Shown piece by piece: positions 4,679-48,206 of a stretch of DNA of 64,000 nucleotides. The stretch covers positions 124,001-188,000 of the forward strand of contig MU119287.1 in the NCBI GenBank assembly GCA_014904845.1, given 5' to 3'. Position 1 is the stretch's first letter, and each line of letters starts with the position of its first letter. The translations under genes and the position numbers were made by a program. The stretch is from Acephala macrosclerotiorum (lineage: Eukaryota; Ascomycota; Leotiomycetes; Helotiales; Mollisiaceae). The notes below the pieces were generated by a model, which saw only the letters and a list, made by a program, of their open reading frames with translations, had not been told where the DNA came from and ran no database searches.

Positions 4679-5916
4679 ATGGCTTATCACCATCAACAAC
4701 CGTGCGAGACCTTCTTCGTTGAAGATGCCTACCCACGGCGCAGCGGACACGACTACACGAAGATTATTGGTCGCCGGAAACAAGAAGCCATGGCGAACGA
4801 ATTGTCGAGACAGGCGTCCGAAACCTACTTGGAGGACATCATTGGACATATGAAGCATATGGAGGTCAATAAGCCTTGGCCTTCACTTTCAATTTCGTTT
4901 TGCTAACCTTCTTCCAGAACGAGACCCTACCCGACGTTGCCTCCATCGACATCCAGCAAGAGATCCAATGGTTCATGAGACCCTACCTCATCGACTTCCT
5001 GATCGAAGCACATGCTGCATTCCAACTCCTCCCAGAAACCCTTTTCCTCGCGGTCAATCTCCTTGACCGATACTGTTCAAAGCGTGTCGTCTACAAGAGA
5101 CATTACCAACTAGTCGGGTGCGCTGCGCTTCTGATCGCTGCAAAGTATGGTGACAGGAAAGAGAGAGTACCAATGATCCGGGAGTTGAAGTCGATGTGCT
5201 GCTCTCTTTACGATGAGGATATGTTCACGCAAATGGAATGGCATGTCTTAAATACGTTGGAGTGGATGATTGGGCACCCTACCGTCGATAGCTTTCTGCA
5301 GATCGCCTTCAAGGACAATCCAGCATACGAGGATCTTGAGGTTGAGCATATGTCGTGGTACCTTTGCGAGATTGCCATGTACCACAAAGACTTTGTTTCA
5401 AGAAAGCCTTCAGTCATGGCTCGTGCATCATTGGCCCTCGCTCGAAATATCCTTGGCCGGTCCGACCCCTTCGAAGGCCAGGATTTCGAGGTCAGCGATG
5501 TCATCGTTAAGCTCTCGACCAAGGTCCGCACTCCATCCCAGGTCCTCTTCCGAAAGTATGTCTCACCCTCTATGTCACGAGTGGCTGAAACCCTCGAGCG
5601 CACCATCCAAAAGCAGGAAGCCATGAACAGAAGAACAAGCCCACCAACACCACCATGCGAGCCGGCCATGCAACAAAAGCCCATCTACAGCCAAGAGATG
5701 TACCCAGGTACCCCTCAAAAGCAACCGTATGGCAATGTGGTCAATGGTTACATGACGCCTCCAATCACACCGGAAGGAGAGTACTTCATAAACGGAGAGA
5801 ACAAGGGTTACCATCAAGCACCACGATGTCCAGTTACACCGACGCCGTCTGGAACCAACCCATACGTCCACCATCAGCAGTACCAGACGTACCACCACGA
5901 TGTGATGATGCATTGA
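4679..5916 (+). CDS. G1/S-type cyclin (CLN family)
   Basis: Regulatory subunit of the cyclin-dependent kinase that drives G1/S entry; acts in nucleus and cytoplasm. Two exons, 4,679-4,864 and 4,918-5,916, joined by a 53-nt intron (GTCAAT donor, GCTAAC branch, TTCCAG acceptor), give 394 residues. The cyclin box covers roughly residues 65-195. It shows MRPYLIDFLIEAH, LAVNLLDRYCSK, and LIAAKYGDRKERVP followed by an aromatic-rich helix (LNTLEWMIGHPTVDSF). A second helical fold follows to about 300. The C-terminal tail carries SPPTPP and TPPITPEG, likely CDK phosphorylation sites. The ATG is chosen because it is the only in-frame ATG before the domain; the frame extends upstream only to a GTG. The set of box residues is closer to G1 cyclins than to B-type cyclins. 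Leader features suggest translational control. Confidence 0.88.
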
Positions 5917-7350
5917 TTTGCATCGCCATCTACTTCACTTCTCTAATGCAGACATACTACTGCATCTCGAGCTACCAATCTTCCTCAAACCTCTCTTATG
6001 TACCACAATTGTATTGATTGTGATTCGGAATTTTTCACATTTCTCGGAACACGGCAACCCAAAATCGTCCTCCCCAAAAGAAATTCATCTGTGTGGCAGC
6101 ATCAGCGTTTTCCTTCCATCTCCTCGTCTCGGCATTAGCGATTTGATTTTCAACCCCCCTGGCACATCCACTGTTTGTCATTTGTCTGTTAGCGATTTGA
6201 TTTTTCATTTTCCTTTTCTTCGATATCCGGAGATTTTCCTTTTAACGGGAAGCACGGATCAATACCTTTGATGAGCGAATACCATTCCTGCACAGCACAA
6301 ATTCCTCGAGCATGGCGATTGTGAAAAGCATGGATGGAAGGGCACAGAACGGAGCGGGACACAAAACTGGAGATTTGGCATGTGATGGATATGGACCATG
6401 CATGCGAAGGATGGGAATAGGATAGATTGCTACTACTACTCATCACCATGTTCTTTCACTGGAAATGGGTGGATATGAGAAGGGGAGGTTGCTTTAATTT
6501 GCATGGGTGGTGGATCTGGATAATTTCACAAAGCCTGCTGTGCATTGTGGGATGGATATATCTGGATCTGGATCTGGATATGCAATGCGAGCGTGGGTGG
6601 ATGTGATACCCGAGCTTGCTTGGTCATGGTCTTGCCAGCCATAGCGAGAAGGGGTAATATGCATGCAATGGAGGCAGGCAATTAGCTAAAGTAGTAATAC
6701 AAGGGCATGCAAACATTTATGCCTCAAATGATTCTTCATCGGTGATTTCTATTGATCTCACAGCCCATCGGTATCCTCCAAGTGGAGCTCGAATATCTGA
6801 ATTTCTTCTAATGTACCCAAGATCCAGACCTAGAACCCAGACTAAGGCCTACGCCTCCATCTATTTCATGTACATGTCTCGTCCATATCTCGTTCATCGT
6901 ACCATCCACCCAGTTGAAGTGTGGTTGCACAGAGATCTCTAGCGGTCTCAAGTCAGGAATGCAATCTACTGTCCAGGTCAACGGGTTCAAGAATGCTTCC
7001 CATTGTTCTCGTAAATTGGATTTCTCCGCTCGAAGTATGGAGGGAGGTGATGATCTGTTCTGGCCTTTGCATATTAGTTTTTGGAGGGGATGAGAAGGAT
7101 GAATGATGGGAATTTGATGCTCTGATGATTTCCTCGCTTCAAACTCCAATCCGATATCTGGAGGGTGGGTCATGGAGTGAAGTAGTAAGTGCTGAATACG
7201 AGGAAATATGAGTTTGTGACTTGAAGATACGATTAACTTTTTTGATTATGCCGAAATGTTCTCTTCCTTGACGCTATACTTTTCTATTTTCTAACACTCT
7301 ATCCCTCTATCCATCTACCACCGTTTCATGCTTAACTCTACCTCACAAAC
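5917..7350. other. Intergenic region between cyclin and retropepsin-like gene
   Basis: Holds the cyclin 3' UTR and the convergent 3' end of the next gene. A short GGATCT-type tandem run lies near 6,556-6,581. A 121-codon ATG frame on the minus strand (7,173-6,808) has no motif, no splice partner and no clear coding bias, so I do not call it a gene. Confidence 0.4.
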
Positions 7351-9405
7351 TCAAGGACCACTTCCCCCTCCAGTCCCACCAGCAGCACCCACATTCCCAA
7401 AACCCCCCGGCGCCCCAAAATTCGCCAACGCAGCATCAGCCTGCCTCAACCCAGGATTACTCTCCACAACAACCTCATTAATCTGGCCCCTCAAAAACGT
7501 AATATTAGACACATGATCCAGCACCTTACTATCCTCATCAACAATCATCCCATCCCTATGATCAAACCTAATCTTCGGATTTCCATACCTATCAAACGGT
7601 AACCCCGGTTTAATCGCCTCAATCCCAATCGCCCACTTCTTCTGTCCCGGCATTCTATGCGATCCTAAAACATCATTCCGATCTTCACCCAGGAATAAAT
7701 GTTCCCGTGTAGGAGCGGACGAGATGTAACATGCCATGAATGGAACCATCCCCGATAAACGGTTTGGGATAGCGATTCCTAGCTCATCGTATTGCATCGG
7801 ATTTGCGGATTCGATGACGGGACAGAGACCCCCGAGGTAGTGGTGAGAGAGTGGCCAGACGGCATTTTTGGGGTCAACGAGTTGTTTCCCCTCATTGTCG
7901 AGCACACAAACGAATAATTCCCATAACCGCGTAATAGTGATCCCGTTCGCAGTCTGCATCCTGGTAACACATTGCGCTCCATATCTATTAGCATCTATCC
8001 CCAACGCCATCAAATCTTCAATATGCAATGATGGGAAAGTTGCACCAGAGTCAAGTAAAGATCGAAACGAGAGTCTGGGACCGTCGTTCTGGCAATCGAT
8101 GAGAGAGGGATCGTTGGCGTCGCGAGTGAATGTCGGTTCGAGGATTGAGGGGTAGGCGGTGGAGGTTTGGACCATGCGACGGACGAAGCTGGAGCGTTTC
8201 CAGAAGCCTTGGTGTACGTAGTAGGGCCCCATGCTGGACCATTCGTCTTGGCGTTCGAGGGCGGCACAGGCGAGGGTTTTGGGTTTGCTTTCGGGGTGGA
8301 CTTTTAGAGGGGGTTCGCTGGAAGGATATTAGTGTTGGGTTGTGAGTGAGGGTGGGGGTGGGCGAGATGTGGGATCTGGGAGGTGAGAGGGAGAACGGGG
8401 TAGTTGAAAGGGGGGACAGAAGGAAAGGGGCTGCTTACTACCAGAGCCAGCCGGCACCGTGGAGGGCGAAGTATCGGTCTAGACGGGTGTTGCGGTCGAG
8501 GCAGAAGGAGTCGTAGGTTGGGGCGGTGTCGACGATACGGCTAGCATAGATGAGGGTGTAGTGCGAGGTGTAGCCGATGGAACTGGACTGGTAGCCTTGG
8601 ATGGCACACTTAATGTTTTCGGTTTCTGGTCCAAACTTGGAGGTTTCGAGAGCCCATTGAAGAGTCTCAAGTCTGGTTTCGATGGCTGTTGCAGCGGGGT
8701 TGATAACTCTGCGAGTTTGTTAGCATAGTTGGAGACATTTTGGGAGAGGAAGTAGAACTACCCAACTTGGTGGTTCTCCTGAAGGCTCTCATCGAGACAG
8801 GCCCGCCTGTCTTTGGCGGCCTGCAGTTTATCTTCAACGATGGGTACCAAGCTTGGGATGTTCTGTTGATGCGTCACCAGAATCTCTTTCCACTGCTGGA
8901 CCTCTTTGTCTGCACGACCGATTCTGGAGAGACCGACTTCTTCTCTGGCGCCGATGATAGTTGAAGGGAAGACGGCATTCCCGGGGCACATGTCAATAGG
9001 TGTTTCCTGGTTTGAGGATGCAACATTACTTGATCTCTTGGCTTTTCTTGGAGTTTTTGGTCCAGCTGGTCTTCGTACGGTCGGAGTTGGTGAGGTTTCT
9101 CGTAATCTTCCAGTACCATGTCTCAGAGAGGTGTCGAGCAATGATAGCTCTGCATTGGTCAATCTTGCCGCAGCTCCTTTAAATTTCGGCTGGGATAGAA
9201 TTGGTGATTTGAGGGACCCTTTGCGGCCGGTTTTTCGTGGAGATGATGGCTTGGTGATTCTGGTCGGTGAGCCTGAACCTTTTCTGCGATATTTGGGGTG
9301 GTTTGGTGTTTTTGGGCTGCTCAGGGATAGGTCATGGAGGGAGATGCTGAGTGGGGCGTACTTTCTGGTGTGGATTGCACCTGTCTGGATTCGTGTGGAG
9401 ACCAT
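7351..9405 (-). CDS. Retropepsin-like protein with basic N-terminal tail
   Basis: Three exons, 9,405-8,762, 8,708-8,442 and 8,317-7,351, with canonical introns (GTAGTT/TGCTAAC/CGCAG and GTAGTA/ACTAAT/TCCAG) give 625 residues. The ATG has an ideal ACCATGG context. Residues 1-150 are basic and rich in SP, PRK and KTPRK, suggesting nucleic-acid binding or nuclear location. Around residue 393 lies LLDSGATFPSL, the hydrophobic-hydrophobic-DSGAT signature of retropepsin-like aspartic proteases. It is followed by a TANGITI strand and, at 511-522, LFLGEDRNDVLG, which could be the second conserved hydrophobic-Gly element. No gag, RT or integrase reading frame lies nearby, so this is a stand-alone host gene rather than an intact retroelement. 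It is divergent from the 2,693-residue gene, with 592 bp between start codons. Protease activity, partner and process are unknown; a non-catalytic fold is possible. Confidence 0.72.
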
Positions 9406-9997
9406 GGTTGCTGGTTGATGCTGGCGGGTGTTGGTCGGCCTTGACGTTTTGAAGCTGCGGTTGATGGCTCTCAGAATCAAATATCAGCAAAGTACATCCT
9501 GGTGATGGAGTACGGCACGGTGCAGTAGTTATAGCCATGGTTATGAGTCTGAAGTTGCTGTTCTATGGAAGAGAGTTGCTTTCGTGTCGATAACGTTGTG
9601 CGGTGTTGGTAGAGAAGCGAGAGAAGCATGGTCGAAAACGGAAGGAAACTCGACGTCCAGCCTCACAATATCGCATGACAAGCAGCAAGGCCATCCTCCA
9701 AGGGGTTTCTCCAGCAGGTTCTGGAATTTGGATTATTGAAGTGGCTGGCATATCGTCGCTAGACCCACTAGTTACATTCCAGCTTTGTTGATATTTCCAT
9801 ATGCGACAAGGAATGCAGGACCCGAGACAATCAATATCCTGCCCCATCGTTCGCAACATCGCGCAGAACAGCAGCACGGTCTGAACGGAACCAGCGTTTA
9901 CGGAATTGCAATACTATCACCTCAAGGACGCATTCAGCATCACTGCAGTCGATGTGAACTTTGGCGCGTATGAACGAGTGAAGATAGCCAGACCAAG
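9406..9997. promoter_or_regulatory. Shared intergenic promoter of the divergent pair
   Basis: This 592-bp gap separates the ATG of the retropepsin-like gene (minus) from the ATG of the giant gene (plus), so it must hold both promoters. I see no clear TATA box and no convincing internal gene. Co-regulation of the two genes is an inference from head-to-head layout only. Confidence 0.45.
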
Positions 9998-12900
9998 ATG
10001 GCAGCCCCCGGGTACGATCCAAACTCTCTCTACAAAACTTCAGGACACTTGTTAACAGTTATCACAGCCCACCTCCCGACCCTTTCGACCCTAACAAGTA
10101 CTCATTCAAGGGCCATCCGCAGCCTTCAGTCAATGACCGCCTTGAGACTGCCAAGAACTTCTTGGCTGACGAGGATCCTGATCGATTTCTGAACTTTCAA
10201 GACAAGTTCACCGAGATCGAAGAATTTGTCGCCGATGTCGAGAAGGAGCCGCGTCTTGCCTATGATGCAGCCCAACTTCGAGATGTCAAAATTATGCTCG
10301 AAGAGCATCGCGACTGGCAGAAAACGGTTGACGCTGGCTGGAAAGACATTAAGTGTCGTGACCGAGTTCCTAAAAACCCATTCTCAAATCGACTGATTAA
10401 TACTGATACGGTTGATTTCATCAAGGAGGAAGGACGGGCGTTGGGAATTAATGGCCAGATGAGAGATGATGCTCCTCCCTTCACCACTGAACGCGAAGAT
10501 GATCACGATGATTTTCTGCGAGCGATGAGGAGCGATGTGATGCAAAATCCAGACGAGGTTGACGAGTCCAAGAATCTGCTCTACATCGAAAGCAAAGCAT
10601 ACAGCTGGGCGATGCAAGATCCGGCCTTCATCCCCTACTGGATGCACCCCACGAAGGGTATCTTGAAGAAGGGACTATCGGATGTCGACGACAAACCATG
10701 GTATATGACACCGCTACCGCTACCGTTTTACATCAAAAATCGACCTGATCGCGGATTCATGCCAGATTACTTGATCAAGAGAGAAAATCGAATCAATGCT
10801 TTGCTGAAAGTCAGGAAGCCCACGTCCCAGCAATTCAAGGAACTTGAGGACTTGCTCAGCTACCACTACCCGGATGATTTAAAAATTCTTCACGATCAAT
10901 ACCACGATTTTCTTGAGACTGATGGCTTGGATGGCAGTGTTAAGACACCTTATCAGCTCAACAAGCAAGAGAGCAAGAAAAGGGACATAATCACGGCGGC
11001 ATTTCAAGACGCACAACTGAAATGGGTACAATCTTTCGCAAGCATTGGATTATATCTGGTCGTCCGGAAACCATGGAAAGAAGTCGAGGTCGAATTGCCT
11101 GGGGTGTTTTACGTCGACGATGGCGTGCTGAGCGACGCACAAATTGCGACACATAGGCAAGCGGACCGTCTAATCAACCAACTTATAACCCACGGTAATT
11201 GGAATCATCTCAGTGCAGTGCAGAAGAGGCAAATGGAGGTACTATTGCACGACTGCCAATCGCAGGATGTCCGAGATCTGGAGAAAAAAAGGGATGACAT
11301 TTTGACGATCTGGGGAGTGGATCGTGTCGAAGACCTAGAAAACTTTCCCCAACTCCAGTGGGAGTCCCTCGATACGCAAGCCTACGAAGCACGGATAAAT
11401 TGGTTCAAGAAGATCAGAGCAGACGGAGTACAATTGGAAGTCAGATATCTGCGCCCTGCAGAAATTAAGGAAGATGACCCGAAATTCATACATTTACCCT
11501 GGTCGATGGACTCCATGCCAGACGGTACCTCGCCGAACTTGGACTGTAAAGTTCCTCCCGAAGTCATCGAGTTGCAGGCTGAAATTAACAAAAAGCTCAG
11601 CGACGGCAATGTGAACAGATCGATTGGCGACGATGGCACTGTCGATTTTCAGAACGACTTGATTCAAGTAGCCTACCCAAAGCTACGACGTTTATTGATA
11701 CCCTGGATAATCATCAGAGATAAGATGGACGCCAACGAACAAATCAGCCCCAACGATAAGGCAACTTTTGATATTCTCGACCCTGAAGTCAGAAAATTGT
11801 GGAACGACTGGGTCAGTACTCTGGGCACTGAAGTCAAGGTGAAAATGGCTCGGAGCCAGATGAAGGCTGAGACACCCGACGTCTTGTATTGGCGCCTTCC
11901 TACCACTGGCAACGATGACCCTGATGTTCTGGCCCGCAAAAACACCAAAGCTATCAACGATTTGCTTCAGACCGATCTCAGTACGCAAGATTCGGCAGTC
12001 AGCGATAAGTTCATGGACGAAGCCAAGATACTATTCGAAGATCTTCAGTATCCTGCGCTCAAAAAGGCTTACGACGACTATGAACAAGCCCTGAAACCCG
12101 ATTCCGTGTCTAAGGAGACCCCAATTAACCTCCTGAACAAATGGGACAAGAAATTGCAAACCTGGATTTATGGCAAACTGGGTCATACGTTATCGATTAA
12201 AAGGCCTCTCCCGTTTTCTGACCCGGACGACGATCCGCAAGTGGTATATTTCCATGGGGCACTACTAGACACTAGATCGACGAAGAGGATTCGAGACCGC
12301 ATGGACTTGACGAAAAGTCCTGAAGAGGTTATACAACAACTTGAAGGATTTCACCATGTCCATGGTGTGGGAGACCTGGTACCACCTTACTTTAGGTACC
12401 TGCAACGTTGCGCACAGGATTCTGGCTCGCCCATCGACAAGCTTTTGCTAGATTGGCATAGCGACTTCTTGCTCCACGGCCCACTCACAGACACCAGTGT
12501 CATGGGTTTGGCCCAAGACTCTGATAACACCACTGACACGGCGATATGGCGTAATGCATACGTCGATAAAGATGGTGTTGTCAAGAACTTTAAAGCAGAA
12601 CCTACGGAGGGAAGTCCTTTTATCAAAGTCGAGCAGATCAGCGATTCTAGTCAGGCTAGCAGCTCGGATGATTCGCCCACTTCGCAGCAGTCAAACACAA
12701 CTAATTCCTCGCTGTCTTCGAACTTTTCGAGATCTTCCGCTGGCTATCACTCGCGGGCCCTTGCGAAACGTATTGTTCAACGACAAGCAGACTTCGGTAT
12801 AGACCTAGAGCAATTCAGACCTCACTTCGCCGCGATTGAGAACGAAGTGAACGCCATTTTTTACAGGATGAATTCGACCCAAGAAGCCCCCCCAGAAACA

Positions 12901-15900
12901 GAGAGAACCAAGCTCAATATGCGACTTGATGTTCTTCTTGAGCCTTTTGCGCCAGATAATTTAGTCAACGCTTGGAAGAAATTCACCCTTTTCAGAAACA
13001 TGATGCAAGTACCTGGTACCATGCCAGTAGCCGCTTTGCGCAAGAAAGAATATTATCAGGGCGAGGAATTAGCAAGAAGCATAACCAGGTTGTTAGTGGA
13101 ATGGAAGTTGCGACTACAACGTTCGCCTAATGGGGTATACGTCCAAATGTCAACAAAACCAGAGGACGAATTCGACGGAGCGGCGCTCATTCTCAATCCG
13201 AGGCAAACTGGGCGAAGCACGAATTTCCGCCTTCATGCGCCGAAAGACCTCTCGGCGCCCATAGGTACATCGGAGGTGATTGAATACCAGCCTTTGAACG
13301 TAGAAAAGCTCGACGTCTACTACAAGGACAAGGAACTGAGAACGAAGATTCTCAGAAGACTAATGGACCGAATTAATGTACTCCTGAAAAAACGAAGGAG
13401 AAGTGATCCGCTGAACAGAGAAGACAGCGAAGAATTACTCGATAAGCTCCTCGGATTCATGTCTCCTAGTCTTCTGAAAATCGAATCAGAACTTTGGGAG
13501 CTTGATCAGAAGGTTAGAGACGTTACTATCCCTCGTAATCTCGATGACGAGGAAAGGTTCGAGCGGCTAAACATATCCTTCAACTCCTTATATGATAAAT
13601 GGTTGGACGGGTTTCCTCCGCAAGGCATCTGGATCTGCACCGTGGACCTCCCGGAAGAAAAAGTAACGCAGCCTGGGCCACTGTTCTTGGAGGATCCGAA
13701 GTTCTGGGATTACTGGACACAAAAGGAACTGGATGGACCCGTTGAAACTCTATCCTGCCGACGGCCTCGTCGCTCGTGGGAACTTCCAAAGCACATCAAG
13801 GTTAGACTGGAAATGTCGAATCAGTACTTGGAAGGGACCTTGTCACATGAAAACATCGATGAAGTTGAACTCATTTTGAAACTCACTTATCGCCACGTCG
13901 GACAACCACTTCGCATCCAGATTCACGCCGAGCTCAATCGACAATTAGGCGAATCTTTGCGCCCAGAAGAAGCTGTCGTCATGGAAACAATGCAATCCCT
14001 GGCATTCCGCGGCTGGAAGAATTACATCAAAAGGACTTTCGAGGAAGACAGGGAAAACAGGCTGCCAAAGAACCAAAAAGCAATCAGGATCGTCGAGTTC
14101 GTTCCCGGGCGTTATTACACGTATTTCGGGATCCCTCTTCGATCTGAGGACAACCTCACGAGTCCCTATCCACCTGGTGCTGAATCATTCTGGGACTCAA
14201 TCGCAGAGGACTATATCACCACTTATTGGGGGCAACTTGCAAACCTTGCAAATGCATTTCTCAAATTTGCAGCACGCGTTCGAAACCAATCGCGTCTGAC
14301 GGCGGATGAGATTTCTGCTTTGAGATTGAATATACTCAATCTTGGAAATAAGACTCAAGAAACTCGCGAGAACTTAGTCATTGGGGTCCTCGACCGTCCA
14401 GATATTATCAATGTATTCCCACCGCTGACCTCTGACCAGCAAGCTATCCTTGCGCGGGAGTATAGGGATATTCTCATGGATAGATGGGTGCGTTCATACG
14501 CAGAGATAGTTGAACATGCTGCCTCGATGCCAGTGTTAAGGACAGTTGACAGGTTGATTGTTAAAGCGCGACCAGGAGAACCATTCCGCAGCGGAGTGCC
14601 TGTCATCGCTACGCCAAGTAAATGCGAGATCCGCGAACTCGAAATTGAGCTTAACAATCTTTTAACAAGAGAGCGCTCCAAAACTATTCAGCCTCGGGAA
14701 CAAGAAGAGCTGGATTTTCTACTCAGATCATTACTGCCTCCCAATTTGCAAATGGCGAAGGAGCGGTTGGATAAGCTTCACGAAAGCTATGTCACATTAC
14801 CAGGGCTGAACATGAGCGAGACTATACAGTACAACAGATACCAGCAGCGGTACAAGCAAGAGTTTGCAGCTTTCAAGCAAAACCTCGAACCACGGGGTAT
14901 TCTCCTAGACAGGTGGTGGTACCCAGCCGATGTCACTGCGCAAGCATGTTCTCGTGCTCGCATGTGGAAGGAGGCGACAGAGAAGGATGTCAACGCAGGC
15001 ACTTATCCCGCTACAAGCAGCAGCCTCGAAGATGAGCATATCGGTCAATGGCATGGTCTGTACCAGGAAATGAAGGACTATGCCGACACGGAGAACGACA
15101 ACACAGTTAACAAACCGGCTAAAGAAGCCAGGTTACTTTTTGATTCAATGCCTGAGCATCTTATCACCCTGGGAAAGGAGATCCACAATTCCAAGGAGCT
15201 TGTAAGTAAGCTACCCGCAGCCACTAGCAATGAGGAAACTCGACAGCGCTCGCACGCATTGGCGTGGGTCGAAGACTTGATAGGTCAATTCGTAAGAGCT
15301 TGGACAAGATGGATCGTCGGAATGCCTGTGAGCTCACTTCCCCTAACGAAGGTTTGATGATACTGATCCTCCATGAAAGCCTTCGCAACTGAATTCTCTT
15401 CGGTCCGCTGCCGGAGGGAACTTACGTTCAAACACCGGCGGAAATACTTCGGGCGGTGGGGCACTGAATAATGGAGTAGGCGTCAACTTCAGTAGCAAGG
15501 CTGAAAGAAGAGGTATCAAGAGAGCAGCCATCGAACTCGCCCTCAATCTCCTCGCCACTAATCAGGAGCAACACCGTCCCCTTGACATCTACCGAAACCT
15601 TGACCTACCTGGAAAGTATCACTCCATCGATGAAGGTGTACCACTATGTTTGCCCTTGGAGCCTTGGCAACGTCCTGTCGAGCAGGACCCGTTTCACTAT
15701 ACCAAAAAACTGACGGCATTTCATCAAGCGAAAGAATCCGAATATAATAATGCGCGTACCCAGCAAGAGAACAGTCACCCCAGTGAACTTCCTGTTCCTG
15801 CTAACTACATGGGACCCATTGCACCAGCAGACACAAGAGACGTCGAGGAAGCCAAGAGGCGATGGCTGGCTCATCTGGCACAAGTCAATGTCCGCTTACA

Positions 15901-18278
15901 ACACGCGAATCTGGACGCTACGCGACCCCTCTTGCAAGAACTGCTTTTGTGTTACGTGGCTGGGAGCAATCTCCAACGAGACCCTGACGATGTCCGGGAC
16001 CAAGATGTAAGGTTAACAATACACGACGTGAACCTCCTGAATGAATTAGCAGAACCATCTTGGGATGAACTCAGACAAAAGTACCCAGAACCCACTCCAA
16101 ATACAATTGGTTACGCTGCTCTTCTCAAGCAGCAGCAAGACGACAAGAATTTTGAGCAAGAGTTGAACGTGCTCGACTGGAGTGGCCGGACATGGCAGCC
16201 AGGAAATAATTGGAACACAACTAACGTTCTAGCACAACGACCATATCAACAGAATGTCGACAGTGTGCAAGGGTATTCCATAACTGATCTTGCGCAGGCA
16301 ATCACTAACGCTCGGCTTGATAATGATAGAGCTGCTGGTGCCAAAATGGCTTCCCCATTGATTTCAAGGGAGGAAACTGCAGATCGCTTGGGTAGATTAC
16401 AGACCTTGCGACGGATACAGTAAGTAGAACCTCTTAACGCAATTGTCATTGCTAATCATCGTAGCTTGAACAAACCCGCGAATGATCCGTTCGAAACGCT
16501 AGTAGCCAAGATTCCTTTGAGTGGACATCCAGAGAATAAGTACATTCTCTCTCGAGACGCCGTGCAACGGTCACCTGGAGTTTTCTTTGATGCCGTTAGA
16601 GGCGAATACCAAGTTCGATACGATGCAAATGGTAAAATGGGACCCCCCATAGTCCAGCCTAACAAGTATGAGCATCTACGATCAATTGCATACCGGATTG
16701 GTCGTGACACCTCTGATGCCTTGAAGACAAGGAGCGCTCCAAAAACGTCTAGGAGACTACTGGTTCATGAGCAGATTAAAGCTCTGCAAGATACGCGATT
16801 AAGAATGCTTCCAGAGGGGAAAGAAGAAGAAGATGTGCAGAACATGGCATTAGAATTACATAAGATTGCACCATATCTTGCTCCAGAGCATGCAATCGTG
16901 GTTGACAAAGAACCTCCAAAAATCGAGCCGTCTGACGCAGCGATGCTACTGCAGATGCAGATGCTCGAGGAAATCAGTAATGCCTGGGAACCTCGCTTCC
17001 CTGGGCAGTCCGAGCGACTGTGGAGTTTTGCTGATGATAGGGTTGCACCGCAGACCACGACCATCAATGGTCGGACAGTCCAGCCCAGACGTAGAATAAC
17101 TCAATTTTTCGACGTTAGACGATTCCCGGCATGCTGTCAAGACACTGCTACAAAGACCGCCATTGCCCAATCAGGCCCACAGTTGCAGACTCGAACTTCG
17201 ACAACGACCACAAACACTACGGTTCCAGTACAACAGACTCCCGCGGAACAGCGAGCTGAGGCTCTCAAAAAGAACGTCAGACATATACAAGGACAGCGGC
17301 CGCACTTTCCGTTTGGAGAAACGCCATATCAGCAAGCTTACCAAAGCTTTTGCATGGAATGGGATTTGGCTGATGGTAAGCATATCCACCATGTCAACTG
17401 AATGAGCTAACATATCTCCAGTCCCTGAGTTTCAAGCTCCTCCGGCCCCTCGACGAGGCTTGTTCGCCAAACGTCCGTCGCCAGAACCAGCTGATCCCTT
17501 CGGTCTCCCACCAATCCCACCAAACTGGCAGCCAGACAACATCTCTGCAGCAGAGAAGCGTGCCCAGCTCATTGAGGCTGCAAAGAATACACCAGGATTT
17601 CCTAATCCCAACATTCTCGAGAACTATCATACGCCTGCAGAGATCCGGGCCATGAAACAGCGCGAAGCATTCGACAAAATTCAGCACGAACTAGAGCTAG
17701 CGCAGGATTCTATTGTCGCACTTGTCAATGAGGGTTATGCGAAGAACAACAAGAAGACATTCGCGCAGCTAACGCCTCAAGAGTTTAGCCAGGCTTGTGA
17801 CCGTCTGCAAATTGATAAGCAGACTGGCAGGTTCAGACCAGATGATTCTAACAAGAAGACTCCGGAGAAGAAAACGCCCTCAATTTGGGACTGGTTCCGG
17901 AAGGTTAGACAAGGTGGCAGTACCGGCCCCGAGAAAGAAAACGAGAAAGCAAAATGGCACACTGAACAGGATACTGGGGATGCGGCTGCGAACGAGGGTG
18001 GTGGCGCAGCACCAGAGGAGAAGGCGAAACAAGAAAGTCAAGACTATGGACCTGAGAAGCCAAAAGTTTCCAAGGAATCCAAGGTCAAGAAAAAGAAGTC
18101 CAAAGAAAAGACTCCTGATCTTCAAGCAAGCGTTGAGGATACTGAGGATGAGGAAATCAAGCAGGAGCAAAGGGGATTTGATGGCACGAGCAAGAGCAAG
18201 GGTTCAAACAAGAGGGCTGCACCACTAGCTCCGAGGAGGACATCGCCGAGGAAAAGACCAAGAAAAGCTGAGGCTTGA
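9998..18278 (+). CDS. Giant 2,693-residue modular protein, family not recognised
   Basis: Five exons: 9,998-10,011, 10,068-15,327, 15,380-16,419, 16,465-17,375 and 17,422-18,278. Introns are 56, 52, 45 and 46 nt, all GT-AG; summed length is 8,082 nt and all junctions keep frame. The ATG has an AAGATGG context, and exon 1 joins to a PPPDPFDPNKYSF-like start. Residues about 240-1,600 hold about ten copies of a diverged helical module, starting near 244, 369, 506, 632, 746, 920, 1,096, 1,253, 1,396 and 1,523. Each has an 'xINxLLxx...ELExLLxxxxPxxLxxL' helix pair and is followed by a short basic/proline stretch with a strand-like 'KxPxxxxF/Y' segment. A Ser-rich linker lies near residues 850-880 and a Gly/Asn linker near 1,770-1,790. 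Residues about 2,548-2,693 are charged and lysine-rich, ending SPRKRPRKAEA, a likely nuclear localisation signal. No enzyme motif, membrane segment or signal peptide is seen. It may be a scaffold working with its divergent neighbour; that is inference. Confidence 0.72.
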
Positions 18279-19345
18279 ATTTAGGCTGGTTGGAAAAGCG
18301 TGAGAAAATGGGTTTGTGGCTTGGACAGCAATGTTTTGTTGGTATTGAATTCTAGAGAGACAGTTTTGTACGAGTAGTTATTTATTGCTATTGTGAAATT
18401 GAAGTTTTTCCTTGTTCAGATATTTCTGTCTATGTGTCTGAGGTGGAACCACTGTCTTGACTCGGGAAGCTGTGGGATGGTGGAAATCATCCCACTAGTT
18501 CAGCGCCGGGGCTAGATATTCTGGCCAAAGAAGGTTTTTGAGGTTAAATATTCTCTGGATGGAGGTCATTTCACTAGGTTAGCTTTTACCTTGGCTTTGA
18601 AGTTCCCTGGAACAGTTTGGTCGAGGCAGCAAGAATTGAGACTTTTTAGATTTCGAAATTCACCACGTTGCCATCCTCCCGACCAATATTCACGTTTGAT
18701 TAGTGTGAGGGGGACGATGAATACACTAACTATATCAACTAAATACCTCGAGATATCAGTGAAACATTGTTAGGGAAAGGCGCTAGTTGCAACTTGAGGT
18801 GCGCAAAATATCAAGTCGAAGAACACAAGTCTGGGTGCATAGATTCACTATAGCTCAGGTTCCGAGGCGTTCTTATGACTACAAAGTCACGGCTATGAGT
18901 TAAAGACAGTATGAAGTGAATATTGCTCAAATAACTTGTCCATTGCTGTTAGATCAGAAGTTGTGGTAAAGTGTTGTTAGAGTGCTGTACGCTGCGCCTG
19001 TCGTTGATCAGATGACGTGACAACGGCCCATAGTGGAGCGCATCTACCATTTTGACCCACCAAAAGCTTACTTCAGACGATTTAGTAAGAGTACAAACAT
19101 CCACTAGCACCGTTCCGCAGACGAGGATGCCTCTGGGAGCATAAATAGCCCCCCACGTTCCCTCATACCACCTTTTCCTCTTCCATACCACGACAACGAG
19201 TTCCACTCTCAATCTTCAAGACAACTTCAACAATAATTGACCTTAGTTCAGCTTCTTCTCACACTCAAGCAATTCCCTTTCCGCAACTCCACTTCCTCCT
19301 TTACACAACTTCTTCGACCTGCACAACTTGAACGGGATCGCAAAG
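18279..19345. other. Intergenic region with TATA-like box for the secreted-protein gene
   Basis: No gene seen. An ATAAATAG box near 19,141 lies about 200 bp before the ATG of the secreted-protein gene and is followed by a pyrimidine-rich leader, a typical fungal arrangement for a strongly regulated gene. Confidence 0.4.
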
Positions 19346-20237
19346 ATGATGTTCGCAACTACCATCATGGCCCTTGTTGGTCTTTCTGCTATCCCAATGG
19401 TAATATCTCCTCTTCGAGCTCCTGATATGAGCCAAAGCTGACATGATATGTGCATAGACCCTCGCTGGTGTTGCCCTAAACGATGTCCCAAAGGGCTTGT
19501 CCGTCCGCACTGGTCCTAGCACTCCTTACCCTCTTGGTGTTATGACCTTCACCGGTGAGCTTGGTGGTCATCAAGTCCAACTCAATGGCTCTGTTCAGGT
19601 ATGCCATCCGAATTGGATGACGTCCTTGCTTGCTCTCAAACTATGGCTGACTGGTTAATAGGAGATCCATGCGCAGATGAAGGCCAAGTACCCCGACTTC
19701 GATGCTGATGCACTTGTTCGTGCCCGCAAGCTCGCTGCTCGTGATGGCGGCTCTGACGTTACCCTCGCTGCTCGTAACAAGGTAAGATACTAGCTTCTAC
19801 CCTGAATCCATCTTTGTGAAAGGCGCATATCTGACTGGTCATAGGAGCTTCCTGGTAACTGCTGCCCCTGCCCCGGTAATGAGCAATGGGCTTGGGCCGA
19901 CGCTGGTCGTATTCAAGAAGGCGTTGACTATCTTAACAACTTCAATGGTCTCTGTAACGTCGGTGCTACATCATGTGTAAGTCCTTGTCTGCGCATTGAC
20001 TCCTGGTCTTTGCTGACTTGCTTCAAGGTTCGGATCTCCTGCTCGTGGAACTCCGGCATCTACCTCTGTAACGACGCTGACCATGCCATTGCACCCAGCT
20101 GTGTCTATATTGCCTCCTACGCAACTGATCTCATTAATCACTGCGTCATCTACAACCCCATTGGCCAAGGTTATGTCTGCGGTCAGGAATTCGACACCGA
20201 TCGCTACAACGTCATCGTCCACGATGATAGCTGTTAG
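19346..20237 (+). CDS. Small secreted cysteine-rich protein
   Basis: Five exons, 19,346-19,399, 19,458-19,598, 19,662-19,781, 19,845-19,976 and 20,028-20,237, all phase 0, give 218 residues. The first 20 or so residues are a hydrophobic signal peptide (MMFATTIMALVGLSAIPM, then an Ala/Gly/Val stretch). The mature part has a variable N-terminal half, with KLAAR as a possible Kex2-like processing region. A C-terminal half carries 11 cysteines: a CCPC cluster, GLC, TSC, ISC, YLC, PSC, NHC, YVC and a final DSC. Each exon is a whole number of codons, so exon shuffling would keep frame. Size, secretion and cysteine content fit an effector or defence-type secreted protein, but I do not recognise a characterised family and no activity can be assigned. 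A decayed paralogue follows directly downstream. Confidence 0.8.
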
Positions 20238-41814: not shown

Positions 41815-44800
41815 TCAATTCAACCAAAATAACCACCTCAACCCTGCCACTAACCCCCTCCCCACACCCATCACCACCCTAGCGATCACAACCATAAACC
41901 AAACATACCACATAATCCCCACTAGCCCCCACTCAACCAACACCCACCCACCCCTCCTCAACCACCTAAACCGCCGCCTCCTCCTCCTCATCATCTTATC
42001 AATCGTATCACTAATCCTCTTAACCTTCAACGTCTGACTCATGACCAAATCCTTACTAACCTCATCCGCCTCATCAGCCGCCATTCTAGTCATCGGCGTC
42101 AAATTATCAGCTAGACGATGTTGCAAGGAGGAGATTTGGTCCATAAGTGTAGAGATTGAGGAGTTGACGAATGTATCAGCGGAGGAACGCCACATTTGGG
42201 AGGAGAGTTGGATGTCCTCGGATATGATGCGGGCGGCGAGACGGTGTTCTTGGGATTTGGGGACGGGGGGTGGTGGGTTTTTGGGGAGGGTGGCGAGGTC
42301 AGTGTACGGTGATTCATCAGGGATTTTGAGGTCTTTTGGCTCTGCTGCTCGGCGGGAGATTTCTTTTGCTTTGATTCCTGAGGAGAGGAGAAGGGCTCGT
42401 ACACGGTTGATTTCTCGTACGGTCATTGGACCGCGGTGTGTGGACATACCGCGATCAGAGATAGACCATGCTCGTTTGCCATCAAGTGACGGCCTGTCGT
42501 GGCTTGTTTCGAGGCTTGAAAGGCCGGTGATGGGAAGTGCATTTCGTCGCTTGCCAGGTAGCCCAAGAATCGAGTTCAACCGAGCATCTGCCATCTGAAC
42601 ACCATTCGATAGACTGCCTCGGCGAGAGTCAATGTCTGAGACCGATGAATCTTTGTCATGCCGACGAGGGCCACTTTCTGGTGACGATGTTGGAGACGCA
42701 TTTTGCACATCAATTCTTGGAGCATCAACTCGAGAGCGTTTCTCGCTTGTCGAAGACTCCGGCTCAGGAGAAAATCCGTTCGCTTTGGTACGAGTTGACC
42801 TGCTTCGACGCTCGAACGGTGATGTGAATGTCGGCAACACTGGGACGTTCCGTAGGTAAGACGACCTTTCCTTCAGCGGCGAAGCCTCGTCGACATTGTA
42901 AAGAGGCAGCCCAGCTGAGCTTTCACGAGAGCCCTTGGTCTCCCCTTTGCGGACATCCTCGATATCTGACTCATCTGTTGAAAAGCCAGAAGTAGTACCG
43001 ATTACCGAATCTTTCTTGAAGAGCAAGTCGCTGACTCTGGAGACCGGATTTCGAGCTTTGAACAGTCCTCGAATTCCAGAATCCTCTTTGCCGCGCCGGA
43101 TACTGCCATTCTTGATAGAGTTGGACCCATCGTCAGTGGCTTTTGACGAGACCCTCTTTATCGGGCTCATTGACCGTCGTCGTGGATCCGAAGCGTCGGT
43201 GTAGTCGCCGGGGCGTTCCTTAGGAGGAGGAGATGCTGCACCAAAGGGAAATTCATCATCTGATTGAATATAACCAGAGCGCTGGGTTCTTTCATAGAAA
43301 GGCCTGCTAATTTTAGACCTTACTCTAGACAGCGGTCTTCGCGTTGGCGAGCTCGGTCTACTTCGAGACGAGAGGTCCATACCAATACTCGGAATGAAGG
43401 CGTTCTTAATCTTGGTTGCTCTTGATACGGGGGAGCTTGGCGCGGTGTTGAGATCCTCCAGAGAACTTCTCGGATGCGCACCGGGCACTTCGAGACTTGC
43501 CCTGCCTGAAGAGCCAGCCTTGATGGATTCTCGTTTATCTTTAGTTAAGGAAGAGGTTCGGCTGTGAACCGCCTTCCCATGCTCATATCTGTCAAATTCT
43601 TCCTTCAAGGATGGCTTCCGGTTCTCTGTCGGCTCCTGCTTCCATGGTGCTTCTTTTTCTTCTCTTGCAATCATCTCCGCCATCTGCTTCTCAAGAATGT
43701 CCTTTCCACGATCATGACTTTCGGTTGTTCCGCTCCGCCTGCGTCGTGGCGGGCGAGAAATTTCGCTATCAGATGAATCCGAATCCGACCTGCTACGAGA
43801 GCGAATACGCATACGAGCTTCGCGAGTCGATCCATTGTGACCATGATGTATCCTCGTAGCTTCTCGGACGTCGCGAAGTTTTTGTCGAGCTCTTGATGTG
43901 GTTGAATCAGAGAATCGGTCAGAACTAGGCTTGACAGACCTGAACTCTGGTAGTTGGGTATCGATTCGCAAATCAATCCCAAGGTCTTCCGCCTTTGCTG
44001 CAGGTGGGGACCTTTTAGGTTCAATAGTATCGCTTCGGTGTGATACAGGCCTCTTCAACTCCGTAGTCCGAGGGAAGATAGTTCTACCAAGGCTATCCTC
44101 GATGATCTTCTTGTTGTCGTCTTGCTCGAGCCAGAAGACATCAGCAATCAGATCCGCTGGATTTATCATCCAATCCACTCTGGGACGCTTGATTTTGGTG
44201 GCCGAGCCTTTACCCATCGCAGATTGAGGTGAGGCATGCAGTGAGGCATCATCTTCTGCAGCTTTTGAGAATGGAGGTAGCATGAGGGTGTCTGCCGCCT
44301 GGTAATCCTCGCTAGATGCCTGTTGAATGACTGCACCGACCCAGGAAGAAACCTTCTCCAAGTCTCCAAAGCCTTGAGCTTCTCCATCGATCGCCCTAGA
44401 ATTGCGAGATCGTACCTTGCGGTTCCTTATGTACTGCAAGGGATTATACTGTCTCCCCAGAGGTCGGTTTATCGGCACAGTCGAAGAGACAGAGCAAGAG
44501 GCTGGATTAGAGGACGTTGGTGATTCCGGAGCCATGGCGCTAGAGCCCGAGGTCGTTGCTCTTTCTAGCCCCTGAGGTTTGAGAGGTGGCACATACTGTA
44601 GCAGCCTCCGATACTGAGCCATCAACTCAATAGCATTCTTGGCCTTCTCTGCTCTCGCAAGAGTTGAAGCAGAAAAATGGTATTGATACGACCCATTCGG
44701 ACTCGAATCAAAAGACGCCTGCAGAGAACTACCAGTTCCTTGTCCGACAATCCTTGGAGAAGTCGTCATAGCCCTCTGCCCTTTGTCTGGTTTCGGGGAG

Positions 44801-45588
44801 ACATTTCTCGAGACTCGGCGCTGCTGTTGAAGATGTTGTCGTAGACTGCCACCCACGAAACTCTCTCCCATCCCCGATGAGACAGGAGGAAGAGGGGTTG
44901 ATGTGATTCTTCTTGATGCATTACGTCTGCTCTCGCTGAGATTCAGGGCGAGATTGACAATTTGTGTCGAATCAACGTCGAGTCCAGCGCTCACAGCTCT
45001 CTTTCCAGTAGCATGATCTTGTCCTTCGATGCCTTCGTTGGTGTGGTCTGTTGTCCCGTTGCCTATGCCGGCAGTGATAACGTTTCCCGCCAGCGGACTG
45101 CCTCCAATGCTAGATCCAATGTTTGACCGTCGCTTTGTATGTTTCTTTTCAGGGCTTCTTGTGGAAGTCTTACCCTTAGGATCTTGAGTAGAATGTCGCT
45201 GTCGTGCAGGTTCTGGCGCTGCTGTCGTCGTAGTCTCTGCAGGCGGAGGTTCGAATACGGAATTATTCAACAGGAATCCACCACTACTCCTACTCTTATG
45301 ACTTCTATGACTCCCTCTGCCATCTTTCACTGCCTTCTGGTTATCAACACCAAGCCTGTCCTCATCGCCATCGATAAACCCATCGGTCTGCCCACCAGTC
45401 ACAAGGCTACTCCGCTGGCTGGCAGCCGTACTCGATTCGCCCGTCTCATTGCTTGCGACACTGTATCTCGTCCCGCTGGACAATGTGCTCCTCGTGCATC
45501 GATCGGTATCTCTGCTTTGCCTGGTGTCTAAGGATGCATTTTGGTTCGAGGTCATCGTTGTCGCTGAAGAGCGCGAGGTGTGATGCAC
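41815..45588 (-). CDS. Large disordered protein with hydrophobic C-terminal tail
   Basis: A single 1,257-codon frame without introns. Most of it is Ser/Arg/Pro-rich and probably disordered, with many SP/TP and RS motifs. More ordered islands are QYNPLQYIRNRKVRSRNSR near residue 390, WMINPADLIADVFWLEQDD near 480, a charged coiled-coil segment (ILEKQMAEMIAREEKE) near 640, and TVREINRVRALLLSSGIKAKEI near 1,060. A helical stretch near 1,150 precedes an RRRRRR block and one or two hydrophobic segments that end the protein (GWVLVEWGLVGIMWYVWFMV), suggesting tail anchoring in an internal membrane. I believe such proteins are conserved in filamentous ascomycetes but cannot name the family. A downstream in-frame ATG (residue 12) is an alternative start. 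Confidence 0.75.
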   Translation of the reverse strand: MHHTSRSSATTMTSNQNASLDTRQSRDTDRCTRSTLSSGTRYSVASNETGESSTAASQRSSLVTGGQTDGFIDGDEDRLGVDNQKAVKDGRGSHRSHKSRSSGGFLLNNSVFEPPPAETTTTAAPEPARQRHSTQDPKGKTSTRSPEKKHTKRRSNIGSSIGGSPLAGNVITAGIGNGTTDHTNEGIEGQDHATGKRAVSAGLDVDSTQIVNLALNLSESRRNASRRITSTPLPPVSSGMGESFVGGSLRQHLQQQRRVSRNVSPKPDKGQRAMTTSPRIVGQGTGSSLQASFDSSPNGSYQYHFSASTLARAEKAKNAIELMAQYRRLLQYVPPLKPQGLERATTSGSSAMAPESPTSSNPASCSVSSTVPINRPLGRQYNPLQYIRNRKVRSRNSRAIDGEAQGFGDLEKVSSWVGAVIQQASSEDYQAADTLMLPPFSKAAEDDASLHASPQSAMGKGSATKIKRPRVDWMINPADLIADVFWLEQDDNKKIIEDSLGRTIFPRTTELKRPVSHRSDTIEPKRSPPAAKAEDLGIDLRIDTQLPEFRSVKPSSDRFSDSTTSRARQKLRDVREATRIHHGHNGSTREARMRIRSRSRSDSDSSDSEISRPPRRRRSGTTESHDRGKDILEKQMAEMIAREEKEAPWKQEPTENRKPSLKEEFDRYEHGKAVHSRTSSLTKDKRESIKAGSSGRASLEVPGAHPRSSLEDLNTAPSSPVSRATKIKNAFIPSIGMDLSSRSRPSSPTRRPLSRVRSKISRPFYERTQRSGYIQSDDEFPFGAASPPPKERPGDYTDASDPRRRSMSPIKRVSSKATDDGSNSIKNGSIRRGKEDSGIRGLFKARNPVSRVSDLLFKKDSVIGTTSGFSTDESDIEDVRKGETKGSRESSAGLPLYNVDEASPLKERSSYLRNVPVLPTFTSPFERRSRSTRTKANGFSPEPESSTSEKRSRVDAPRIDVQNASPTSSPESGPRRHDKDSSVSDIDSRRGSLSNGVQMADARLNSILGLPGKRRNALPITGLSSLETSHDRPSLDGKRAWSISDRGMSTHRGPMTVREINRVRALLLSSGIKAKEISRRAAEPKDLKIPDESPYTDLATLPKNPPPPVPKSQEHRLAARIISEDIQLSSQMWRSSADTFVNSSISTLMDQISSLQHRLADNLTPMTRMAADEADEVSKDLVMSQTLKVKRISDTIDKMMRRRRRRFRWLRRGGWVLVEWGLVGIMWYVWFMVVIARVVMGVGRGLVAGLRWLFWLN

Positions 45589-45934
45589 CCTTCAAGGCAG
45601 AGCCTTTTTAGATCATGGTTGAGTGAGGACGTTTCGCGTGGAAGGTATTCAGGAATTCGTTGTCAATCACATGCACTGCTGTTCAGGCAAGGAAAACTTG
45701 ATCGCGTTGACAGGTTCGATAGGGTGTTCTAGGGAACGCGCCAAAATAACCTTATTTCCAGCAAATGCCGAGCGAGGAAACAAAAGCCGACCTCTGTTTC
45801 AGGATCACTTCTGTGGACTTCATTATACAGAAATTACATGGCATTTGAGTATGAGCTATGTTCTAAACACGTTACACTACTGTCTTAGAACGCCAGGTAG
45901 AAGTCCCCTAAACGCCATACTTTTGCTATTGCCT

Positions 45935-47965
45935 CTAAACGACTCTCGGACCCTTCCCTTTCTCGATTTTTCTCCTCTTGGCCCTCAACTGTTCGGCCTC
46001 AGCATCCTTCTTCTTGTTACTATAAGTCATCTTCTCCAAAATCTTCCTCTTCTTTCTACTCATCATCATCTTGGCTCTCTCCAATTCCTCATCCTCTTCC
46101 TTAGCTGTCTTCTTTGCCTTCTTTCGTGCATCGGCCTTGGCCTTGGCTCTAGGGTTAACCTCCTTTTGATCCAATGTAGTGCCTGCGAGTTCGGCTTCTA
46201 GCTCACGCTGTCGCTGTAATGCTTCGGATGTTCCTTCATCTTCCTCTTCCTCTTCAACATCGGAAAATCCGCCAAATGGCACGTCGTCGTCCTCGGCTTC
46301 ATCGGAATCCTCCTCGGATCCGGCGACATCCATACCCTCAGCAGTTGCGTCAACTTCATCATTTGTGAGCAACCTTAGTTCTTTGACAGCGAGATCATCA
46401 TCTGACACATCGGACTCGATGTCGCTGTCGGCCTCTAACTCCTCATCCTCGCGTTCTTGCTCGTTGAGTGGAGCGCTTGGATCATACTGGCCTCGGACCT
46501 TCTTGACGAACGGACTGAGATGAGGTGGAAGTGATGCGCCTGGTGCATAGAGATCTGGTCTCTTAAGCTCCTCGTCGTTTACACTGTCCCAGATCCATTG
46601 TGGTTGGATATAGATTCTGCCGGGTACTCGCTGCCCGGGTCTGACACGCTGAGATGTTTGGTTGTCTTCGGCTTCTTCCTCTGGGCTAACCTGTGGCGGG
46701 GGTTTGTCGACGACTTGATGTGTGATGGATGGGTCGAGTTCGTTGTGTGTGAAAGCACCTTCGCCGAGGACGGCATCCCATCCGATGCGCTTGCAGCCGA
46801 ATGATCTGAGGATGAACTCAAGGGGTTGTCGTGGGGTCTCTCGGGAAAGGAAGAAGGTGAAGTTTGAGAAGAGGGTCGAGGGGTCGGCCGCTGAGTATGA
46901 TGGTTGCGGCAGGATATCTCCACCTGGTGCTGCTGGCTCGAACTTATCGATTGTGTTGGTCGGCTGCTCCTCATCATCGTCTTCCTCGGAAAGAGTCTGG
47001 CTTGTCGCTAGCTCCTGTTCCTTTTCAGGGACATTCAGCTGTGACATGAGCTTGTCAATCTCCTTCTGCAGCTTCGGGTCTGGCTTCGCCGACTCTCCGT
47101 TTGTGATCTGCTTTGGCTGTTCGATCGCACCAATTCCATTGCCCTCCAACGAGAACGCTCCCAGTTCAGCTCCTTGATCGTCGCGATTCTTGTCGAACTT
47201 CGGTGGGTATACGAGACCAATTGATGTGTAGAGACGGAAGTTGACGAATCCAAGAAGAGTTTGGTAGAACTCCACGAATGTCCCCATAATCCGGAAATCC
47301 ACATCTCCAGTCACTCTCTGATTGAATTTGTATGGCACCAACCACAGAATATCCTGCCCTTGAATCGTAGCTTGATAGTAGATACCCTTGATCGACAAGA
47401 ATGACTTGCGCAAGCTATGAGACACAATCAAGTAGTGTTCAAACTCGAGACATAATCGTTCGCATCTTGCGATCATCTTGGCAGGGACGGTGTCGGTGGA
47501 CGGGAGGTTTGCGAACAAGAACAACATCGACAAGCAGTCGTCGAGATCTCGCAGCGCATCGATAAATGTCGGATAACGTTCGCGAATAACATGATCGAGT
47601 GTATACTTCGTCTTACCCGTCTTCTCAGGCCGGTTGGCATTCTTCTCGAGTCGTTGTGCGTCGTGCGCGTCTCCTCGTCCTAGAGCTTTCGAGATCTTCT
47701 TCTCAAGCGCTTTCTGGTCTCGGAACTTGGCAAGAAGAGGTTCGTGAAGCAGATATTGGATATCTTTCGTATAGTAGAAAGTCGTAGAATGGCTCGAGTT
47801 CTTGGCTGCCTTCTTCCTGTTTCGTGGTTCTCGAGGATAGATACCTTTCCATATGCAGAGTTTTCGAAAATCTGGGAGAGAGATTTGGAGTTTTCGTACG
47901 GCTTGAGTTCTCGTAATGTAGTTTTTGGCATTACCAGCAGTTCCCTTCTTCTTTATTCGGCCCAT
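45935..47965 (-). CDS. NOP7: Pescadillo homologue NOP7
   Basis: Nucleolar factor of the PeBoW (Nop7-Erb1-Ytm1) complex, needed for 27S pre-rRNA processing and 60S ribosome assembly. An intronless 676-residue frame starts [20 protein letters not shown], the canonical pescadillo N-terminus. The Pescadillo_N domain spans about 5-290, with [29 protein letters not shown], and the [19 protein letters not shown] block. A BRCT domain lies at about 360-460, with [20 protein letters not shown] and QWIWDSVND. An acidic stretch (about 500-570) and a lysine-rich coiled coil end the protein. The length is usual for fungi. Its ATG is 241 bp from that of the divergent PIG-U gene, so they probably share a promoter. 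Confidence 0.95.
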
Positions 47966-48206
47966 TGTTGCTGATTGTGAAATTGGGACTTTGAATTAGT
48001 TTTCACCGTGGGGTCTTTGGAGAAATTCCAAAGCTGGTGAACTTTTTTCCTTATCGCGGCCCGATAATTTTCCGACCAGCTTTCATCAGCCAATCACAAC
48101 TTCCGACCCCTGACGCGATCTGAAGTTCTGAACAGCTGGAGCTCGAATTGATGACATTTGGAGTTGGAGGTTGAGCTTCAATCACGATCCCCTGGAATAA
48201 TCTAAC

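What the first reader, a model, noticed from the sequence alone, without database searches (positions are those of the whole stretch)
7351..18278. Head-to-head pair: retropepsin-like protein and a giant modular protein
Two multi-exon genes of unknown family face away from a 592-bp gap. One carries a DSGAT aspartic-protease motif, the other is a 2,693-residue repeat protein. Both have basic, SP/PRK-rich ends. The pairing suggests one process, for example a protease that matures or regulates a large scaffold, but function is inference. This is my best candidate for an undescribed system.
Basis: partly seen in the sequence, partly recalled or inferred. Interest (0 to 1): 0.78.

Follow-up and report, generated by a model that had tools for sequence, protein, structure and literature searches.

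The report
Conserved retropepsin and repeat-scaffold gene pair
Two neighbouring fungal genes that start back to back, one for an HIV-protease-like enzyme and one for a very large protein built from an undescribed repeated unit, seem to lie near each other in several related fungi too, which hints at a shared but untested job.

The parts
8762..9405 (-). Gene A exon 1 (predicted): disordered basic N-terminus and start of the conserved N-terminal domain
   Evidence: GT donor at 8761; start resembles homologue P0002 MVSTRLQTGAI
8439..8708 (-). Gene A exon 2 (predicted)
   Evidence: Acceptor 8709, donor 8438 chosen of two that keep the frame; WLWYEPPL junction as in homologues
7351..8317 (-). Gene A exon 3 (predicted), retropepsin-like domain, stop at 7353-7351
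   Evidence: fold on homologue P0002
8050..8052 (-). Codon of the presumed catalytic Asp394 (LLDSGATF)
   Evidence: Position; Asp kept in 119 of 120 listed homologues, D[ST]G in 116 of 120
7663..7674 (-). DVLG (residues 520-523), hydrophobic-Gly motif of the second half of the lobe
   Evidence: Position; hydrophobic-Gly in 120 of 120 aligned homologues
9406..9997 (.). 592-bp gap between the two start codons; presumed shared promoter region
   Evidence: promoter function is inference
9998..10011 (+). Gene B exon 1 (predicted)
   Evidence: start MAAPG as in P0121
10068..15327 (+). Gene B exon 2 (predicted): N-terminal conserved region and most of the module array
   Evidence: 1,789-codon open frame; acceptor 10067 chosen of several, matches P0121
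10768..11115 (+). B module 1
11167..11487 (+). B module 2
11557..11892 (+). B module 3
11935..12252 (+). B module 4
12823..13182 (+). B module 5
13354..13686 (+). B module 6
14626..14931 (+). B module 7
15079..15388 (+). B module 8 (partial, weakest, 28.6 bits; crosses the intron 15328-15379)
15380..16419 (+). Gene B exon 3 (predicted): start of the best conserved block (FSSKAERRGIKRAAIELALNLLATNQEQHRPLD, from 15488)
   Evidence: Intron 15328-15379 chosen of many frame-keeping options because MP/PSQL aligns without gap to P0121
16465..17375 (+). Gene B exon 4 (predicted): conserved block continued
   Evidence: Intron before it is the only frame-keeping pair found; the one after it is one of three, chosen because LADVPEFQ matches P0121
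17422..18278 (+). Gene B exon 5 (predicted): end of conserved block and variable tail, basic in this genome

Best explanation
A and B are a conserved, co-regulated partnership. A is an intracellular retropepsin-like protease: a single lobe with one DSGAT aspartate that would have to dimerise to form an active site, preceded by its own conserved N-terminal domain that would provide dimerisation or targeting. B is a large intracellular scaffold: an N-terminal conserved region, an array of eight mainly helical modules that in the model each end in two short strands, low-complexity linkers (seen by eye), and a best-conserved C-terminal block. Most likely the two are expressed together from the 592-bp region between them, and A acts on B or on proteins held by B: it cuts B at exposed linkers to release or retire module segments, or is anchored by it. 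Shown: gene structures by homology, A's conserved motif and predicted fold, B's modules, and indirect signs of linkage in four other species. Inferred: dimerisation, activity, location, shared regulation, and the protease-scaffold relation.
Confidence: 0.4

Rival explanations
1. Neighbours by inheritance only. Both genes are real but do unrelated jobs; the short divergent arrangement was simply kept in related Helotiales because little rearrangement has happened or because a shared promoter cannot be split.
For: The linked species all fall near the window's A in the A tree. Most A homologues are from species with no B among the hits. Different rates of divergence of A and B.
Confidence: 0.4
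2. Domesticated retroelement genes: A from an LTR-element protease and B from amplified gag-like units.
For: Weak matches of A-family members to gag-asp_proteas (13 of 55, best E 0.00098) and Asp_protease_2 (10 of 55, best E 0.00082); retroviral proteases among the structural neighbours.
Against: One match each in the own genome, introns, a mostly taxonomy-like tree over several classes, only two short direct repeat pairs (27-29 nt) and no inverted pair in 5900-20000, 0 Pfam families at E <= 0.01 in 10 B proteins, no BFVD match of the module model at E <= 0.001. An ancient retroelement origin of A's lobe alone is not excluded.
Confidence: 0.1
3. B is an artefact of joining two or more separate genes across the intron 15328-15379.
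For: That intron has a weak acceptor (CATGAAAG) and many other pairs keep the frame; the best conserved block begins soon after it.
Against: Other species annotate one protein of similar length and order, and residues on both sides of the junction align without a gap to P0121. Module 8 runs across it. Those annotations are themselves predictions.
Confidence: 0.05

Closest known systems
Eukaryotic single-domain non-viral clan AA peptidases (DDI, NIX-1, SASPase; classes as named in passages of PMC2642776)
   Same: Single retropepsin-like lobe with D[ST]G and hydrophobic-Gly in a cellular protein
   Different: No ubiquitin-like or UBA match in 55 members at E <= 0.1; own N-terminal domain of about 150 residues; extra segments in and after the lobe; found in several Pezizomycotina classes
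SASPase (ASPRV1) with profilaggrin
   Same: Works-like comparison only: retropepsin-like protease beside a giant repeat protein as possible substrate (the relation is recalled; titles and abstract starts seen)
   Different: No comparison of B with filaggrin was run apart from Pfam; genes divergently paired here; no cleavage data
Retropepsin-like aspartic protease of Rickettsia conorii (PDB 5c9f, 5c9d, 5c9b)
   Same: Closest solved fold for the A family
   Different: About 20% identity over the aligned core; bacterial; only title and abstract start of PMC4140852 seen
Fungal proteins named hypothetical, uncharacterized or Peptidase A2 domain-containing
   Same: These are the A family itself
   Different: No study of them seen in the listings

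Membership tests
Clan AA retropepsin-like peptidases | D[ST]G catalytic motif after a hydrophobic strand | tested here: met
   LLDSGATF in A; D[ST]G in 116 of 120 homologues, Asp in 119; two read DCG, one has an insertion after the Asp, one lacks the segment
Clan AA retropepsin-like peptidases | Second-half hydrophobic-Gly motif | tested here: met
   DVLG in A; hydrophobic-Gly in 120 of 120
Clan AA retropepsin-like peptidases | Single-lobe retropepsin fold | tested here: met
Clan AA retropepsin-like peptidases | Score above the Pfam cut-off of a retropepsin family | tested here: inconclusive
   Window exon 3 to gag-asp_proteas 12.8 bits, cut-off 28.2: below it; 13 of 55 members match at E <= 0.1, best 0.00098, bits not shown; PF00077 no match in the own genome
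Clan AA retropepsin-like peptidases | Homodimer and proteolytic activity | not testable with these tools
   No assay; one conserved Asp motif per chain implies dimerisation
DDI1-type proteases | Ubiquitin-like and UBA domains flanking the protease | tested here: not met
   No such family among the seven Pfam families matched by 55 members at E <= 0.1
LTR retroelement (Ty3/Gypsy) gag-pol | Multicopy element with LTRs, gag and reverse transcriptase | tested here: not met
   One match each in the own genome; two short direct pairs of 27-29 nt and no inverted pair in 5900-20000; no reverse transcriptase and no gag match other than the weak protease one
Known helical-repeat scaffolds (spectrin, HEAT, TPR and the like) | Sequence profile of the repeat | tested here: not met
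   0 Pfam families at E <= 0.01 in 10 of 10 B homologues; window exons only weak rows, E 0.11 or worse
Known helical-repeat scaffolds (spectrin, HEAT, TPR and the like) | Fold of the repeat | tested here: inconclusive

The most novel reading that the evidence does not exclude
An undescribed two-gene protease-scaffold system of Pezizomycotina, ancient in its protease half, in which a dimeric cellular retropepsin cuts a fast-evolving giant array of a new four-helix plus two-strand module at its linkers, giving fungi a counterpart of retroviral polyprotein processing or of SASPase with profilaggrin.
Probability: 0.15. Interest if true: 0.8.

Novelty: new variant of a known kind. Interest (0 to 1): 0.5.

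Why it matters
Cellular retropepsins with a known natural substrate are few, as far as I recall. A protease family found in several fungal classes with an almost invariant catalytic aspartate, and apparently linked in Helotiales to one giant protein, gives a concrete candidate substrate that can be tested. The module in B would be a new repeat family for protein databases. If the link is only positional, the families remain undescribed but ordinary.

Tried and rejected
Domesticated retroelement: see the rival. A and B sharing a module: profile comparison of the B module with the A family gave probability 0.2%, and hmmsearch of A no hit. PF00077 in the own genome: no match. Weak PDB sequence rows for A (huntingtin glutamine run E 0.0022, Gfh1 coiled coil E 0.33; Baseplate hub E 1.1) and for four B modules (best E 0.29) judged low-complexity or chance; the full B profile gave none at E <= 1. 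Known fold for B: none at useful scores; only residues 222-742 were folded, and this does not show that the fold is new. A's N-terminal domain was not searched alone. Relatives of A in viral and prokaryote contig collections: 58 and 96 pattern hits, none confirmed. RNA families at the gathering score: none. tRNA: none. Basic ends as a clue: dropped; A first 100 aa net +5 or more in 19 of 72 homologues of 500 aa or more; B last 60 aa net +5 or more in 3 of 10 and negative in 5 of 10.

Literature, seen as listings only except passages of PMC2642776: six of these locus tags in no paper; others (20 of 139 papers listed; 10 of 59,215; 10 of 254; 12 of 262; 15 of 1,089; 10 of 80) showed nothing on either family. 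These were broad word searches of an open-licence library, so a study could have been missed.

Limits: the A search listed 120 of 158 hits, scored only the 7,992 candidates sharing most words, and many rows carry no species name. By the tool's length rule the B searches take proteins of about 984-3,130 aa and 1,484-4,723 aa, so shorter or very divergent relatives were not candidates. The module profile was trained on the proteins it was then counted in. Species taxonomy in this report is recalled.

Full report
What is there. The window is part of a 69.66-Mb assembly of 778 contigs; the closest named relatives of its two proteins are Mollisia scopiformis, Phialocephala subalpina and a Mollisiaceae isolate, so it is a member or near relative of that helotialean family (inference). 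Two genes face away from each other. Gene A reads on the minus strand from an ATG at 9405 to a stop at 7353-7351, with introns at 8761-8709 and 8438-8318; two donors keep the frame for the second intron, and the one that gives ...GWLWYEPPL fits the homologues, for 626 aa. Gene B reads on the plus strand from 9998 to 18278 in five exons. Several introns had more than one frame-keeping choice; I chose by agreement with P. subalpina P0121. The gap is 592 bp. All splice sites are predictions; there are no transcripts.

A tree of 31 A proteins (window plus 30 named) groups M. scopiformis and the window with Oculimacula, Rhynchosporium, Cadophora, Leptodophora and Diplocarpon, then other Leotiomycetes, then lichen fungi with Geoglossum, with Sordariomycetes apart (taxonomy recalled). 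Exceptions: Halenospora (P0086, the row without the active-site segment) lies outside its class, and a row named Lasiodiplodia mahajangana (P0069) falls among Xylaria relatives. This is mostly the pattern of an old vertically inherited gene. Exon 3 of A has one match in the own genome.

Linkage. The protein lists report the longest contig and, for some rows, locus tags. Four species have both an A and a B representative: Oculimacula yallundae (tags 9291 and 9290, contig 816,287 both), Diplocarpon mali (004962 and 004963, 164,687 both), Rhexocercosporidium (2,254,844 both) and Cadophora sp. DSE1049 (616,390 both). That is 4 of 4. Rhynchosporium has both, but from different species representatives, so it cannot be judged. 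The tags in the last two of the four are far apart in number and say nothing on distance. Orientation is not given anywhere.

Against a fixed pair: Phialocephala subalpina, Mollisiaceae sp. DMI_Dod_QoI, Diplocarpon rosae (two B proteins) and Monilinia vaccinii-corymbosi list B, but no A under their names among the 120 shown; unannotated or misannotated A genes, unnamed rows, cluster members or the 38 rows not shown could explain this, and I could not check. Mollisia scopiformis, Leptodophora, Hyphodiscus and other Leotiomycetes, and the Sordariomycetes and lichen fungi listed, have A and are not among the ten B hits; B searches are length-bound and need shared words, so absence is not shown.

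Structure, motif, size and arrangement are right. The repeat claim is right and can be stated more sharply. The basic SP/PRK ends are real here but not conserved, so they do not tie the genes together. The co-occurrence test comes out in favour as far as it could be run; the test of divergent orientation could not be run.

How it may work. I commit to an intracellular dimeric protease co-expressed with a scaffold that it cuts at linkers or that anchors it, at about 40%, equal to the plain rival of neighbours kept by slow gene-order change. Motif, predicted fold, modules and indirect linkage are shown; dimerisation, activity, location, shared regulation and the relation of protease to scaffold are inferred. 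The nearest works-like case is SASPase with profilaggrin (recalled; listings only). From PMC2642776 I saw passages only: they name DDI, NIX-1 and SASPase as the eukaryotic non-viral families and speak of a DTG/ILG template, which A resembles.

Novelty. A is a new member, and with its own N-terminal domain a new variant, of cellular retropepsin-like proteins; the B module is undescribed as far as Pfam and the PDB and BFVD searches show. No paper on either appeared in the listings, which show only the top rows from an open-licence library.

Noticed in passing
4873-5916 (+): Cyclin frame (Cyclin_N E 7.7e-35, Cyclin_C E 5.8e-13) whose end lies about 1.4 kb from the end of gene A.
   Followed up: no
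45935-49570: Pescadillo frame (minus) and GPI transamidase PIG-U frame (plus) face away from each other with frame ends 393 bp apart, perhaps another head-to-head pair.
   Followed up: no
52010-53683 (+): Frame with an RRN9 match (RNA polymerase I factor) just over the cut-off, 26.0 against 25 bits.
   Followed up: no
41815-45591 (-): 1,258-aa open frame with no Pfam match at E <= 0.001, serine/arginine-rich by eye, with a hydrophobic C-terminal stretch that could be a membrane anchor.
   Followed up: no
P0086 and P0008 (homologues of A): Halenospora protein lacks the DSGAT segment and Rhexocercosporidium has an insertion right after the Asp; both may be gene-model errors.
   Followed up: partly
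P0067, P0080 (homologues of A): Hypoxylon crocopeplum and Parahypoxylon ruwenzoriense proteins read DCG in place of DSG at the active site.
   Followed up: no
P0127, P0130, P0126, P0129 (homologues of B): Diplocarpon rosae lists two B proteins with different contig lengths; Cadophora and Monilinia B proteins are short with only two modules found.
   Followed up: no
P0069 (homologue of A): A row named Lasiodiplodia mahajangana groups with Xylaria in the A tree; possible mislabelled or contaminated record.
   Followed up: no
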